Assembly: GCF_902859745.1 (NCBI RefSeq)
Contig: NZ_CADIJW010000008.1
Location: 102,009-166,008 of the forward strand
DNA length: 64,000 bases
Direction: 5' to 3'
From: Achromobacter dolens
Lineage (GTDB): Bacteria; Pseudomonadota; Gammaproteobacteria; Burkholderiales; Burkholderiaceae_B
The position numbers and the translations under genes are program-made. Shown one piece after another: positions 1 through 63,614 of the stretch (position 1 is its first letter; the number at the start of each line of letters is the position of its first letter). Below the pieces are notes generated by a model that was not told the origin of the DNA, searched no databases, and was given only the letters and a program-made list of their open reading frames with translations.

Positions 1-191
1 ATCAGCTAGGGTAAGTCCGTACGGGGTTTACCCCTTCGGCAATAACCCTTCGTTTTTGGAGGTCATTGCTGTATGCGGCTTTGCGGGCGACGGCCGAGGA
101 GTTTGCGGCAAAAATGCAACGTGAAATGGTGCAGTGCGCAGAGCTCAAAAAAATTCTTGCATCGCACAAAAAAACCCGATACTATGCATCT
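1..191. other. Region with no recognised gene
   Basis: I see no convincing protein gene here. A small hairpin (GGGGT-tt-ACCCC) lies near position 24-35 without a following T run. A GGAGGT at 58-63 stands 9 nt before an ATG at 73, which opens a 45-codon frame to 210. Its composition is unlike neighbouring genes, so it was not called. The right part carries the promoter for the candidate small RNA. Confidence 0.4.
157..185 (+). promoter_or_regulatory. Sigma-70 promoter of candidate small RNA
   Basis: TTGCAT (157-162), a 17-base spacer, then TACTAT (180-185). Both boxes are close to consensus and the spacing is ideal. Transcription would start near 192 and run into the terminator at 327-358. 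No protein gene lies in that interval. Confidence 0.55.
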
Positions 192-358
192 CATCGGATG
201 TTGAAACGCAGTCGGCGCGGTTCAAAAGCAAGACCCAAGCAAAATGAACCCCGACAGCGCAGCGAGTGAAAGCCGCTCCCAACATGCCACGGTTGTCTCC
301 TCCACCCTCCTCCTTTGGTGGATTTAGCCCGAGATCTCACGATCTCGGGCTTTTTTTT
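192..358 (+). ncRNA. Candidate structured small RNA with anti-SD loop
   Basis: The unit is bounded by a good promoter upstream and a perfect terminator at its 3' end. Several helices can be drawn by eye. ATGTTG (198-203) pairs with CAACAT (280-285). GTCGG (211-215) and GGTTCA (219-224) pair with CCGAC (251-255) and TGAACC (245-250), leaving a 3-nt bulge. A short AGCG/CGCT hairpin spans 261-277. TCCACC (301-306) pairs with GGTGGA (317-322) and exposes a CTCCTCCTTT loop, complementary to Shine-Dalgarno sequences. I do not recognise the family. C-rich loops of this kind are known in several bacterial regulatory RNAs that bind mRNA leaders, so translational control is the inferred role. Ends are predicted only. 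Confidence 0.5.
327..358 (+). terminator. Rho-independent terminator
   Basis: GCCCGAGATC (327-336), a 4-nt loop TCAC, then GATCTCGGGC (341-350), followed by eight T residues (351-358). The 10-bp stem is perfect. It ends the candidate small RNA. Confidence 0.9.
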
Positions 359-713: not shown

Positions 714-1817
714 GTGACCTGGCTGTACATATGCGTGGTCGCGTTCATGGTGGGGGGACTCATCGTGGCGTCGGAGCGCTGGCATGGCGCCTTCACCGGC
801 GACAGCGATCTCAACAAGCCGCAAGCGAATCATTCGCGCGCCACGCCCCGCGTCGGCGGCCTGGCCGTGCTGGCCGGCACGCTCCTGGGCCTGTTGGTGC
901 TCGGGCCCGACAACATGACCCTGACCTGGTTGTGGCCGGCCCTGTTCGTGTCGGCGCTGCCCGTGTTCGTGGCGGGCCTGCTCGAAGACATCACCAAGGA
1001 CATCGGCGCCAGCAAGCGTCTGCTCGCGGCTTTCCTGTCCGCTGCGATCGCGTGGTGGCTGCTGGGTGGCGTCAGCCGCGTCGGCATGGCCCCGGTGGAT
1101 TATGTCCTCTCGTACTGGCCTGTTTCCCTGGTGTTCACCATGTTCGCGGTGGGCGGCTGTACCCACGCCCTGAACATCGTCGACGGCATGAACGGCCTGG
1201 CCGGCATGGTCGCGACGCTGATGGCGGTGTCCATCAGCCTGGTCGCGCTGCAGGTTGGCGATGTGCCGATCTTCCTGATTGCCGCGGCGCTGGCTTCGGC
1301 CACGCTGGGATTCCTGGTCTGGAACTTCCCGTTCGGCCGCGTCTTCCTGGGCGATGGCGGCGCGTACTTCCTGGGTTTCATGCTGGCCGAGCTGGCCGTG
1401 CTGCTGGTGGTGCGCAACCCTTCGGTGTCGCCGTTCTACGCGCTGGCGGTGTTGTTCTACCCCGTATTCGAAACCGGCTTTTCCATCTGGCGCCGCCGCT
1501 TCAAGCGCGGCGTGCCGGTGGACCAACCGGATGCCTTGCACCTGCATCAATTGGTGTTCCGCCGCCTGGTGCGCGTGACCTTCAGCCGCGGCCGCCGCCA
1601 TGCGGTGCCGGCGCTGTGCAATGCGTTGGCCTCGCCCTACATGTGGGTGCTGGCCCTGATTGGCCTGGTGCCCGCCACCATCTGGTGGGACAACGCCTGG
1701 GCGCTCAGCGCCAGCCTGGTGGTGTTCGCCAGCGTCTATATCTGGCTGTATGCGCGACTGGTGTCGTGGCGCCGTCCGGGGTGGTTGCTGTTGCCCTCCG
1801 TCCTGCGAGCCGATTAA
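714..1817 (+). CDS. MraY/WecA/WbpL-type undecaprenyl-phosphate glycosyl-1-phosphate transferase
   Basis: Integral membrane enzyme expected to transfer a HexNAc-1-phosphate from a UDP-sugar to undecaprenyl phosphate, so starting lipid-linked oligosaccharide assembly at the inner membrane. It has 367 residues and many hydrophobic segments. Family motifs are visible: NIVDGMNGLAG around residue 145, FLGDGGAYFLGF around residue 212, and a His-containing LHLHQLVFRR loop near residue 277. The GTG start at 714 is preceded by an AGAGGTGA ribosome site; no better ATG is in register. It is the first gene of the glycan cluster and resembles WbpL more than MraY because of this context. The exact sugar cannot be read from sequence. 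Confidence 0.85.
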   Translation: MTWLYICVVAFMVGGLIVASERWHGAFTGDSDLNKPQANHSRATPRVGGLAVLAGTLLGLLVLGPDNMTLTWLWPALFVSALPVFVAGLLEDITKDIGASKRLLAAFLSAAIAWWLLGGVSRVGMAPVDYVLSYWPVSLVFTMFAVGGCTHALNIVDGMNGLAGMVATLMAVSISLVALQVGDVPIFLIAAALASATLGFLVWNFPFGRVFLGDGGAYFLGFMLAELAVLLVVRNPSVSPFYALAVLFYPVFETGFSIWRRRFKRGVPVDQPDALHLHQLVFRRLVRVTFSRGRRHAVPALCNALASPYMWVLALIGLVPATIWWDNAWALSASLVVFASVYIWLYARLVSWRRPGWLLLPSVLRAD

Positions 1818-1916: not shown

Positions 1917-3194
1917 ATGTTGCGTATTCAGGATGTGAAGCTCGCGGTCGTCGGCCTCGGCTATGTCGGTCTGCCGCTGGCGGTGGAATTCGGCAAGAAG
2001 CGCTCTGTCATCGGTTTCGATATCAACACGCGCCGGATCGACGCCCTGAAGGCCGGGCATGACCACACGCTGGAAGTCAGCGACGCCGAACTGGCCGAAG
2101 CCAAGCAACTGACCTATACCGCCGACCGCGCCGAACTGGGGCAGGCCAACGTGTTCATCGTTACCGTGCCCACGCCGATCGACGAGTACAAGCAGCCCGA
2201 CCTGACCCCGCTGGTCAAGGCCAGCGAAACCATCGGCGCGGTGCTCAAGCGCGGCGACATCGTCATCTACGAATCGACCGTCTACCCCGGCGCTACCGAG
2301 GAAGACTGCGTGCCCGTCCTCGAGCGTGTGTCGGGCCTGAAGTTCAACGTCGACTTCTATGCCGGCTACAGCCCCGAACGCATCAACCCGGGCGACAAGG
2401 CACACCGCGTCAGCACCATCAAAAAAGTCACGTCGGGATCGACGCCGGAAGTGGCAGAGCTGGTGGACCAGCTCTACAAGCAGATCATTACCGCTGGCAC
2501 CCACAAGGCGTCCAGCATCCGTGTGGCCGAGGCTGCCAAGGTGATCGAGAACACCCAGCGCGACGTCAACATCGCGCTGATCAACGAGCTGGCGCTGATC
2601 TTCAACAAGATGGGCATCGACACCGAGGCCGTGCTGCAAGCGGCCGGTACGAAGTGGAACTTCCTGCCGTTCCGTCCGGGCCTGGTGGGCGGCCACTGCA
2701 TCGGCGTGGATCCGTACTACCTGACGCACAAGGCGCAGTCGATCGGCTACCACCCCGAGATCATCCTGGCGGGTCGCCGCCTGAACGACTCGATGGGCAG
2801 CTACGTGGTGTCGCAACTGGTCAAGGCCATGACCAAGCGCCGCATCCACGTGCAGGGCGCGCGTGTGCTGGTGATGGGTCTGGCCTTCAAGGAAAACTGC
2901 CCGGACCTGCGCAACACCCGCATCGTCGATATCGTCAAGGAGTTGGGCGACTACAACGTGGAGGTGGACGTGTACGACCCGTGGGTCGACGCGGAAGAAG
3001 CCGTGCACGAATACGGCATCACGCCGGTCGCCAAACTCGAAGAAGGCAAGTACGACGCCGTGATCCTGGGTGTCGCACATCACCAATTTGCAGACTTGGG
3101 TGCCGCCGGCATCCGCAAGCTGGGCAAGCCGGAACACATTCTTTATGACCTGAAGTACGTGTTGTCGCCTGCCGAATCCGATTTGCGCCTGTAA
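1917..3194 (+). CDS. tviB: UDP-N-acetylhexosamine 6-dehydrogenase (WbpO/TviB type)
   Basis: Oxidises C6 of UDP-GlcNAc or UDP-GalNAc twice with NAD+, giving the UDP-N-acetylhexosaminuronic acid. At 425 residues it is normal for the UDP-glucose/GDP-mannose dehydrogenase superfamily. The N-terminal Rossmann motif VGLGYVGLP is at about residue 12. The catalytic cysteine sits in [12 protein letters not shown] near residue 260. The C-terminal domain ends with a YDLKYVL segment. The following gene is the matching 4-epimerase, the same pairing as tviB-tviC (Vi antigen) and wbpO-wbpP (P. aeruginosa O6). That context favours HexNAcA synthesis over plain glucuronate. The start has a good GAAGGGAGA ribosome site. 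Confidence 0.9.
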
Positions 3195-3206
3195 GGAGGA
3201 CGTTGC

Positions 3207-4232
3207 ATGACCACACGCTTCGAGACCGTCACCCAGGAACTGGCCGCAGTGCCGCGCAAATGGCTGGTGACAGGCTGCGCTGGCTTCATTGGCTCCAACC
3301 TGCTGGAAGCCCTGCTGAAGCTGGACCAGACTGTCACCGGTCTGGACAACTTTGCCACCGGACACCAGCACAACCTGGATGAAGTGAAGGCCTCAGTCAC
3401 GCCTGAACAATGGGCGCGCCTGACCTTCATCGAAGGCGACATCCGCGACCTGGATGCGTGCCGTCGCGCGGTGCAAGGCGTGGACTTCGTGCTGCATCAG
3501 GCGGCGCTGGGTTCGGTGCCGCGTTCACTCAAGGACCCGATTACCACCAACGACGTGAATATCGGTGGTTTCTTGAACATGCTGGTGGCGGCCCGTGATG
3601 CCGGCGTGAAATCGTTCGTGTATGCGGCCTCCAGTTCGACCTATGGCGACCATCCGGCCCTGCCAAAGGTCGAGGAGAATATCGGCAAACCGCTGTCTCC
3701 CTACGCCGTCACCAAGTTCGTCAATGAACTGTACGCCGATGTGTTCGCGCGTTCCTACGGCTTTGAGACCGTGGGCCTGCGCTACTTCAACGTGTTCGGA
3801 AAGCGCCAGGATCCCAACGGCGCGTATGCGGCGGTCATTCCCAAGTGGACGGCGGCGATGATCCAGGGCGAGGACGTCACCATCAACGGCGACGGTGAAA
3901 CCAGCCGCGACTTCTGCTTCGTCGACAACGCGGTGCAGGCCAACATCCTCGCCGCAATGGCGCCGGCCGAGGGCCGTAATCAGGTCTATAACGTGGCCGT
4001 CAGCGGTCGCAGTACCCTGAACCAGTTGTTTGAATTCCTCGTGCAGGCGTTGGCCAACCAGGGCGTGACTTACGGTAAGCAGCCCGTCTACGCCGACTTC
4101 CGCGCGGGCGACGTGCGCCACTCGCAGGCCGACGTCAGCAAGGCCGGCCGCCTGCTCGGCTACCAGCCCACGCACACCGTGCTGCAGGGCCTGGAAGTGG
4201 CGATGCCCTGGTACACGCAATTCCTGCGTTGA
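3207..4232 (+). CDS. tviC: UDP-HexNAc(A) C4-epimerase, WbpP/TviC type
   Basis: Extended short-chain dehydrogenase that inverts C4 of UDP-N-acetylhexosamine or its uronic acid using bound NAD+. Visible features are the nucleotide-binding [13 protein letters not shown] at about residue 24, the TYGDH segment, the catalytic SPYAVTK (Tyr-x3-Lys) near residue 168, and the [19 protein letters not shown] substrate segment. The 341 residues match TviC and WbpP. A long N-terminal lead before the Rossmann motif is typical of this subgroup. It lies 12 bp after the dehydrogenase, behind an AAGGAGG ribosome site, so the two are translated from one message. UDP-GalNAcA is the likely joint product. Confidence 0.88.
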
Positions 4233-62485: not shown

Positions 62486-62989
62486 TCAGCCCGGCCAGGA
62501 TTGCTCGCGGCGTTCCTTGGCCTTTTCCTGCAGCCAGCGTTCCACCGAGGGGAACACGAACTTGCTGACGTCGCCGCCCAACTGGGCGATTTCGCGCACG
62601 ATGGTGCCGGAGATGAACTGGTATTGATCCGACGGCGTCATGAACAGGGTCTCGACGTCGGGCAGCAGATGGCGGTTCATGCCAGCCATCTGGAATTCGT
62701 ATTCGAAGTCGGACACGGCGCGCAGGCCGCGCACGATCACGCGCCCGCCCTGGTCGCGCACGAAGTCCTTGAGCAGGCCGCCGAAGCTCTGCACTTCCAC
62801 GTTGGGATAGTGCCCCAGCACTTCGCGCGCGATATCCACGCGCTCGTCGATGCTGAAGAAGGGCTTCTTGTTGCGGCTGTGCGCGATGCCGACGACGACT
62901 TTGTCGAAAAGCGTGGCGGCGCGGCGGACCAGGTCTTCGTGGCCTCTGGTCAGCGGGTCGAAAGTGCCGGGGTAAACAGCGATGATCAT
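62486..62989 (-). CDS. coaD: Phosphopantetheine adenylyltransferase
   Basis: Fourth step of CoA synthesis: adenylates 4'-phosphopantetheine. 167 residues. Nucleotidyltransferase motif [15 protein letters not shown] (T/HxGH) at residues 6-20; [33 protein letters not shown] near 90, and [20 protein letters not shown] near 130. The neighbour rsmD lies 58 bp upstream on the same strand, the standard rsmD-coaD pair. Confidence 0.97.
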
Positions 62990-63047: not shown

Positions 63048-63614
63048 CTATTTGCGCAATGCAGCAAATTCCAGCAGATGGTAGTGGACCGCGCCTGCCT
63101 TGTCCTGGCGCAGGATCTCGAAGCCGTCGGGCGCTTCGATGGGGTTTTCGGCCTCGACGTAGACCAATCCGCCCTCGGCCAGGATGCCGGGCAGGATAGG
63201 CCACAGGCGCGGCAGCCAGCCCTGTCCGAAGGGGGGATCCAACAGGATGAGGTCAAAGCGGGAGGCATCCATTCTTTCGACGACCTGCATCGCATCGCCC
63301 ACATGGATGCGTATCATGTCGGCTTTGAGCTTGTCGCGCAGTGTCCGCAGCGCGGACGCGGCAGTCTTGTCGCGTTCCACCATCTGCACGTGCGCCACGC
63401 CGCGCGAGGCCGCCTCGAAGCCCAGGGCGCCGCTGCCGGCGAACAGGTCCAGCACCTGCTTGTCGGCGAATTCGCCGCCCCACAGGTGATTGAGCCAGTT
63501 GAACAGCGTTTCCCGCACCCGGTCGGGCGTCGGGCGGAGCGTCTCCACGTCGGGCACGACGATAGGGGTGCGCCGGTATTGGCCCCCGACGATACGAATA
63601 TACTTGTTACCCAT
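63048..63614 (-). CDS. rsmD: 16S rRNA (guanine966-N2)-methyltransferase
   Basis: SAM-dependent methyltransferase modifying G966 of 16S rRNA. 188 residues from ATG 63614 (MGNKYIRIVGGQYRRTPI); the frame stays open beyond it only as an antisense shadow of ftsY. RPTPDRVRETLFNWL near residue 28, SAM loop LDLFAGSGALGFEAASRG near residue 52 and the catalytic LLDPPFGQGW near residue 122 (DPPF in place of the common DPPY). Its start codon overlaps that of ftsY on the other strand. Confidence 0.94.
   Translation of the reverse strand: MGNKYIRIVGGQYRRTPIVVPDVETLRPTPDRVRETLFNWLNHLWGGEFADKQVLDLFAGSGALGFEAASRGVAHVQMVERDKTAASALRTLRDKLKADMIRIHVGDAMQVVERMDASRFDLILLDPPFGQGWLPRLWPILPGILAEGGLVYVEAENPIEAPDGFEILRQDKAGAVHYHLLEFAALRK

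What the first reader, a model, noticed from the sequence alone, without database searches (positions are those of the whole stretch)
157..358. Undescribed structured small RNA with an anti-Shine-Dalgarno loop
Directly visible: near-consensus promoter (157-185), at least three helices including one of 11 bp with a 3-nt bulge (211-224 with 245-255), a hairpin presenting CTCCTCCTTT, and a perfect 10-bp terminator with eight T. No protein gene fits the interval. A CCUCC loop could pair with many ribosome sites, implying a regulator of translation.
Basis: partly seen in the sequence, partly recalled or inferred. Interest (0 to 1): 0.7.

Follow-up and report, generated by a model that had tools for sequence, protein, structure and literature searches.

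The report
Known S17 small RNA, PhaR-type operator
The stretch encodes a small RNA already described in related bacteria that blocks ribosome-binding sites, and its promoter appears to carry the binding site of a protein that senses stored carbon polymer, which would explain when the RNA is made.

Summary
Window 294-358 is Rfam RF02278, Betaproteobacteria toxic sRNA (69.2 bits, cut-off 50). The whole unit is the Achromobacter orthologue of Bordetella pertussis S17 (Sim et al., preprint PMC11722255): same promoter hexamers and spacing, same neighbours (coq7 and a glycosyltransferase), same conserved stretch. There, S17L is cut by RNase E to a ~67-nt Hfq-dependent repressor that pairs with ribosome-binding sites.

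Two additions that I found in no paper searched. (1) The promoter carries a PhaR-type operator (152-172). A matrix trained only on phasin promoters ranks it first in the 64-kb window. Of 80 scored family genomes, 75 of 75 with PhaR have the site; three of five without a PhaR hit lack it, and two fragmented assemblies keep it. PhaR is thus a candidate for the unknown repressor that Sim et al. postulate. Against: most Cupriavidus and Ralstonia copies that score low lack the site. (2) The 5' leader is closed by a covarying helix, 196-203/280-288, ending 5 nt before the expected cut. No reading frame is conserved.

PhaR binding and repression are inferred, not shown.

The parts
152..172 (+). PhaR-type operator (palindrome core TGCATCGCA at 158-166), overlapping the -35 element and the spacer
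   Evidence: best site of the whole 64-kb window under a matrix trained on phasin promoters, 23.2 bits; 500 random 260-nt stretches of the window reach at most 7.3; binding not tested
157..185 (+). sigma-70-type promoter, TTGCAT-17-TACTAT
   Evidence: sequence; identical hexamers and spacing to the mapped S17 promoter
193..293 (+). 5' leader of the long form (expected start A193 by analogy with S17)
   Evidence: position relative to -10 as in S17; conserved start GGATGnnGAAACGC in 78 of 213 core sites
196..203 (+). helix P1, 5' strand (GGAUGUUG)
   Evidence: RNAalifold; 99.0% of 488 cells paired, 26 double-changed cells against 8.8 in shuffles
280..288 (+). helix P1, 3' strand (CAACAUGCC, one bulged G), ending 5 nt before the expected cleavage site
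   Evidence: as above
   Evidence: MFE; weaker conservation, 84.4% of 609 cells paired for the 10 pairs tested
294..358 (+). mature short form (S17S type), RF02278
   Evidence: 69.2 bits, model positions 1-64 of 64; 5' end by analogy with S17S
301..322 (+). first hairpin of the short form, with the anti-Shine-Dalgarno loop CTCCTCCTTT (307-316)
326..358 (+). intrinsic terminator
714..1817 (+). downstream neighbour, glycosyl transferase family 4 (same neighbour type as at S17)
   Evidence: PF00953; coq7 lies upstream, outside the window, L151:1177-1851

Best explanation
The locus is the Achromobacter orthologue of S17, a member of RF02278. A housekeeping-type promoter makes a ~166-nt precursor whose 5' end is folded into a leader domain closed by helix P1. 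RNase E would cut just after P1 and release a ~65-nt Hfq-bound double-hairpin RNA whose C/U-rich 5' end and first loop pair with G-rich ribosome-binding sites, many of transport genes, and block translation. Transcription is most likely repressed by PhaR (PhbF), the regulator that sits on its operators until polyhydroxybutyrate granules form and bind it; carbon storage would then switch the RNA on and turn down nutrient uptake. Shown here: family membership, synteny, the operator and its loss in three genomes without PhaR, P1 covariation, absence of a conserved frame, Shine-Dalgarno-type target sites. Shown elsewhere for B. pertussis: promoter, processing, Hfq dependence, target repression. 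Inferred: PhaR binding and repression, granule control, and cleavage and targets in this species.
For: RF02278 at 69.2 bits; promoter hexamers and spacing, neighbours and 28-nt core as in S17. Operator: top site of the window; in 94 of 109 named loci the S17 promoter region has a site of 12 bits or more, and in 89 of 109 it holds the best site of the locus (about 2.8 expected); GCA at one spacer position in 66 of 91 promoters called without it; 31 of 31 phasin upstream regions carry the palindrome, 8 of 31 control stretches; published PhaR/PhbF motifs agree. Co-loss: 75 of 75 PhaR-bearing genomes have the site, 3 of 5 without a PhaR hit do not. P1. Targets: 16 sites against 0 for the reversed pattern, 7 of 13 usable genes are transport proteins. 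Precedent: PhaR represses the sRNA MmgR in Sinorhizobium. RF02278 RNAs rise in glucose medium in Burkholderia.
Against: No binding or expression data for PhaR on this promoter. Two genomes without a PhaR hit keep the site (G226, G219; fragmented assemblies). In 15 of 109 named loci the S17 promoter region has no site of 12 bits; 10 of these are Cupriavidus or Ralstonia and two more are Burkholderia or Burkholderiaceae, and R. eutropha does have PhaR. TTGCNNNGCACAA alone is not enriched in this genome: 7 hits, 7 for the reversed control. The Burkholderia RNAs also rise in starvation, and ncS27 rises most in biofilm. The B. pertussis spacer sequence was not seen. The reversed pattern is a weak control for Shine-Dalgarno sites. 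S17S was not toxic in exponential growth of E. coli, unlike other members.
Confidence: 0.8

Rival explanations
1. Same sRNA, but the TGC-N3-GCA element is the site of another regulator, or a promoter feature without a repressor.
For: TTGC of the motif is also the -35 element; two PhaR-less assemblies keep it; no binding data.
Against: GCA stands at one fixed spacer offset in 66 of 91 promoters, which no sigma-70 feature requires; the matrix from phasin promoters predicts it; it is gone in three genomes without a PhaR hit, two of which (G145, G156) keep promoter elements.
Confidence: 0.15
2. The leader encodes a small peptide and the RNA is mainly a small mRNA.
For: Sim et al. note a possible 32-residue ORF in S17; in 32 of 61 relatives an ATG is in frame with the TAG that is conserved in 61 of 61, and the window has a 27-codon one at 244-327.
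Against: 29 of 61 have none; leaders with the middle shuffled have one in 38%. The distance from the leader ATG to the core leaves remainders 0, 1, 2 in 16, 20 and 25 of 61.
Confidence: 0.04
3. Only the 3' end of an upstream message (coq7) that terminates at 326-358, without its own transcript.
For: The RNA lies downstream of coq7 on the same strand.
Against: Own promoter with the hexamers mapped and transcribed in vitro for S17, conserved in relatives; leader covariation.
Confidence: 0.02

Closest known systems
S17 (S17L/S17S) of Bordetella pertussis, Sim et al. 2024 preprint, PMC11722255 (Results, Discussion, legends and Table 1 read)
   Same: Promoter hexamers and spacing, neighbours, conserved core, terminator; an Achromobacter xylosoxidans A8 homologue is in its Fig. 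3 legend
   Different: Long form 166 instead of 190 nt; the preprint does not mention PhaR or PHB and its legends and text do not single out helix P1
RF02278 toxic sRNAs / double-hairpin RNAs ncS03, ncS05, ncS27, ncS62 of Burkholderia cenocepacia (PMC4603805, PMC5688073, passages)
   Same: Same covariance model, two hairpins, C/U-rich unpaired stretches opposite ribosome-binding sites
   Different: Several copies there, one here; mostly short transcripts without the long leader
MmgR of Sinorhizobium meliloti (suhB, RF00519; PMC12542648 and PMC8401924, passages)
   Same: Hfq-dependent sRNA with a PhaR site in its promoter, repressed by PhaR
   Different: RF00519 score here 18.8 against a cut-off of 41; no evidence of common descent; reported targets are phasins
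NmsRb of Neisseria (RF02877)
   Same: Anti-SD loop and terminator; 35.5 bits over the whole model
   Different: Below its cut-off of 52

Membership tests
RF02278 Betaproteobacteria_toxic_sRNA | Covariance score above the gathering score of 50 | tested here: met
   69.2 bits, full length
RF02278 Betaproteobacteria_toxic_sRNA | Two hairpins with C/U-rich unpaired stretches | tested here: met
RF02278 Betaproteobacteria_toxic_sRNA | Toxicity when cloned in E. coli | not testable with these tools
   reported for other members; modest or absent for S17S
S17 | Promoter TTGCAT-17-TACTAT | tested here: met
   window 157-185
S17 | Position between coq7 and a glycosyltransferase gene | tested here: met
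   PF03232 and PF00953
S17 | 27 invariant nucleotides at the 5' end of the short form | tested here: met
   the 28-nt core taken from the window occurs exactly in at least 120 contig stretches and scores full length in RF02278; compared with the preprint's description, whose figure letters were not held
S17 | RNase E processing, Hfq binding | not testable with these tools
   shown for B. pertussis S17 only
PhaR regulon | PhaR-type palindrome at the promoter | tested here: met
PhaR regulon | PhaR binding and change of expression without PhaR | not testable with these tools
   no experiment; only co-loss in genomes
MmgR / suhB (RF00519) | Score above the gathering score of 41 | tested here: not met
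   18.8 bits, E 0.27

The most novel reading that the evidence does not exclude
Across much of the Betaproteobacteria, S17/RF02278 is the RNA arm of the PhaR regulon: when polyhydroxybutyrate accumulates and draws PhaR off the DNA, this anti-Shine-Dalgarno RNA is released, matured from a leader capped by helix P1, and shuts down import and catabolism genes, a storage-to-uptake feedback reached in parallel with MmgR in Alphaproteobacteria.
Probability: 0.58. Interest if true: 0.65.

Novelty: new member of a known kind. Interest (0 to 1): 0.48.

Why it matters
The RNA itself is known, but what controls it is not: Sim et al. postulate an unidentified repressor of the S17 promoter. A PhaR operator there makes that question directly testable and would tie a widespread translational repressor of transport genes to carbon storage, with a parallel in MmgR of Alphaproteobacteria. 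The covarying leader helix next to the cleavage site gives a concrete hypothesis for how the precursor is matured.

Tried and rejected
Peptide-coding reading: rejected as the main function (ORFs without family hits). Read-through from coq7 as the sole source: not favoured, since an own promoter with the mapped hexamers is present, but not excluded. NmsRb, anti-hemB, SorY, SorX, ncS16, suhB and NsiR1: all below their cut-offs. Leader accessibility: the model gives 294-305 unpaired 0.46 in the long and 0.60 in the short form, a small difference that I do not build on. Pairing with the phasin start of this genome: its ribosome-binding site looked like an ordinary Shine-Dalgarno match by eye; no claim. 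Pattern TTGCNNNGCACAA alone is not enriched genome-wide: 7 hits, 7 for the reversed control; only the 21-position matrix discriminates.

Caveats on controls: the promoter finder used the operator-like consensus, so its 187 of 203 (10 of 213 sites left out as too close to a contig end) is not independent evidence for the operator; searches are. In one search, 96 of 203 sites had no promoter under the neutral score and were left out. One search left out 11 of 120 loci (short, or core too near the end). The 80 genomes are those of the 200 whose S17 locus I had in hand, not a random draw, partly fetched by me to cover PhaR-less genomes and their congeners; the site was sought anywhere in 260 nt upstream, and in some genomes it lies further up than in the window. 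G225 was moved from PhaR-negative to positive; left as negative, the table would be 74/0 and 3/3. Co-occurrence of the RNA with PhaR (13 of 14 RNA-less genomes lack a PF07879 hit; 6 of 186 with the RNA lack one, G225 among them) is confounded by genome reduction: nine of the 13 are below 1 Mb, and one (G091) is 66% complete. Related sequences inflate the counts.

Full report
What is there. The region reads as a complete sRNA gene on the + strand: promoter 157-185, expected start at A193, leader 193-293, and a two-hairpin module 294-358 ending in an intrinsic terminator. Rfam names the module RF02278 at 69.2 bits against a cut-off of 50. It gives one match in this genome, and matches above the cut-off in 43 of 43 genomes of the genus and 186 of 200 of the family, with 0 of 14 control genomes. 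The genus is Achromobacter by inference: contigs of four unnamed same-genus genomes have the same lengths as named Achromobacter records (412187, 803734, 1184295 and 1234547 bases).

It is S17. Sim et al. (preprint PMC11722255; Results, Discussion, legends and Table 1 read; abstract and passages) describe S17 of B. pertussis between coq7 and a glycosyltransferase gene, with promoter TTGCAT-17-TACTAT, a 190-nt long form, RNase E processing to 67 nt, Hfq dependence, 27 invariant nucleotides in a range of Betaproteobacteria including Achromobacter xylosoxidans A8, and direct repression of BP2158. The expected long form here is shorter, 166 nt.

Leader structure. Of 213 core sites in the loci then held, 78 have the same leader start GGATGnnGAAACGC; 61 were distinct and aligned, 17 identical ones dropped. 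RNAalifold predicts one conserved helix within the leader, P1, pairing 196-202 with the 280-288 stretch; I added the pair 203-280. Of 488 cells 99.0% pair; 26 cells are changed on both sides against 8.8 in shuffles (0 of 500 as high); sliding the partner gives 23.0-48.6% paired. The number of pairs with double changes (2) is no more than in shuffles (335 of 500). At least 7 of the 8 P1 pairs form in the single-sequence fold of 58 of 61. P2 is weaker: 84.4% of 609 cells, 18 double changes against 5.8. Beyond these sequences a similar architecture recurs: 142 of 158 distinct leaders pair their first 16 with their last 30 nt by at least 5 pairs, against 29.7% of shuffles; for the 70 with another leader start it is 62, against 34%. 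P1 ends five nucleotides before the expected cut. I infer that it fixes the 5' end and presents the cleavage site; that is not tested.

Not coding. The leader ATG lies 0, 1 or 2 (mod 3) from the core in 16, 20 and 25 of 61; an ATG in frame with the conserved TAG exists in 32 of 61 against 38% in shuffled leaders.

Operator. In promoters called only by sigma-70 hexamers, GCA stands at one fixed spacer position in 66 of 91 distinct promoters and at no other of the offsets examined in more than 9. With the -35 this makes TTGC-N3-GCA. PhbF of Herbaspirillum recognises TG[N]TGC[N]3GCAA (PMC3206438, passages), S. meliloti PhaR WNWD2NYGCRNYGCRNH2WNW (PMC12542648, passages), R. eutropha PhaR YTKNTGCRNYGCANMAR (PMC12849132, passages); compared by eye, the window site departs from each of the last two at one position. 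This genome has PhaR and a phasin with two such sites upstream. Upstream regions of 31 of 31 phasin genes (this genome and the 30 loci returned; 94 of 101 genomes had a hit) carry YGCRNYGCR; 8 of 31 control stretches and 21% of shuffles do. A symmetric matrix from 61 sites, without this genome's phasin and without the other same-genus locus fetched, ranks 152-172 first in the 64-kb window at 23.2 bits, near the training median of 23.9. In 109 of the 120 named loci that could be tested, the best site of the locus lies in the S17 promoter region in 89 (about 2.8 expected) and a site of 12 bits or more in 94; of the 15 below, six are Cupriavidus, four Ralstonia, and two Burkholderia or Burkholderiaceae. 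Five hundred random 260-nt stretches of the window reach at most 7.3.

Loss with PhaR. Of 80 family genomes scored, 75 of 75 with PhaR have a site of 12 bits or more within 260 nt upstream (lowest 14.0). Of 5 without a PhaR hit, 3 lack it (G145 and G097, listed as 100% complete in 1 and 9 contigs, and G156 at 91%) and 2 keep it (G226, G219, about 290 and 210 contigs); Fisher p = 1.2e-4, not corrected for relatedness. In G145 and G156 a -35/-10 pair can still be read by eye while the GCA half of the operator is gone. G225, first scored PhaR-negative, has a PhaR domain fragment at a contig end.

Targets. GGAGGAGAC followed within 1-12 nt by ATG occurs 16 times in this genome and 0 times for the reversed pattern. 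The comparison partly reflects ordinary Shine-Dalgarno sequences. One hit is the antisense of S17 itself and two precede very short frames; of the other 13, seven are transport proteins: one MFS, three TctC receptors, two periplasmic binding proteins, one amino-acid permease. Sim et al. report 32 transporter-related genes or operons in their set.

Model. PhaR on 152-172 would block the -35 element; PHB granules would draw PhaR away and allow S17, which lowers uptake and catabolism. The Burkholderia RF02278 RNAs ncS03, ncS05 and ncS27 rise 8.0-, 6.9- and 4.3-fold in glucose medium, which fits, but also 2.6- to 3.9-fold in starvation, and ncS27 9.7-fold in biofilm (PMC5688073, passages). MmgR of S. 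meliloti is a precedent for PhaR repressing such an RNA, though RF00519 is not met here.

Literature on the PhaR link. Searches (the last listed 20 of 239 papers), plus look-ups inside PMC11722255, PMC7011215, PMC5688073 and PMC10987360, show no statement linking RF02278 or S17 to PhaR. The library holds only openly licensed papers; the 2012 toxicity paper is not held and the 2019 ncS27 paper was not looked up, so it was seen only as cited by others. The probability of the novel case was lowered slightly after one search showed how consistently Cupriavidus and Ralstonia fall below the threshold.

Noticed in passing
window 63049-63069: Second-best PhaR-type site of the window (21.7 bits), about 60 nt upstream of coaD (62486-62989, minus strand; TIGR01510). 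In S. meliloti a putative PhaR site lies before the pantothenate operon, so CoA synthesis may be a second PhaR target here; relatives were not checked.
   Followed up: partly
window 124-144: A weaker PhaR-type palindrome (7.9 bits) 28 nt upstream of the main one; phasin promoters usually carry two copies about 55 nt apart.
   Followed up: no
window 8-33: GGGTAA...TTTACCC inverted repeat upstream of the S17 promoter, recurring in most same-genus sequences of the alignment; not explained.
   Followed up: no
L111 and L185 (Pigmentiphaga for L111): Two tandem RF02278 copies a few hundred bases apart; several genomes of two other-genus groups carry 2 or 3-5 copies.
   Followed up: no
L093, L133: Contigs of metagenome bins titled Klebsiella pneumoniae and Bordetella parapertussis carry the exact S17 core with leaders unlike those of the named Bordetella records; the titles are probably wrong.
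   Followed up: no
window 1917-4229: Downstream genes match TviB-type UDP-GlcNAc dehydrogenase (above cut-off) and a TviC-type epimerase (476 bits, below the cut-off of 760): a surface-polysaccharide cluster.
   Followed up: no
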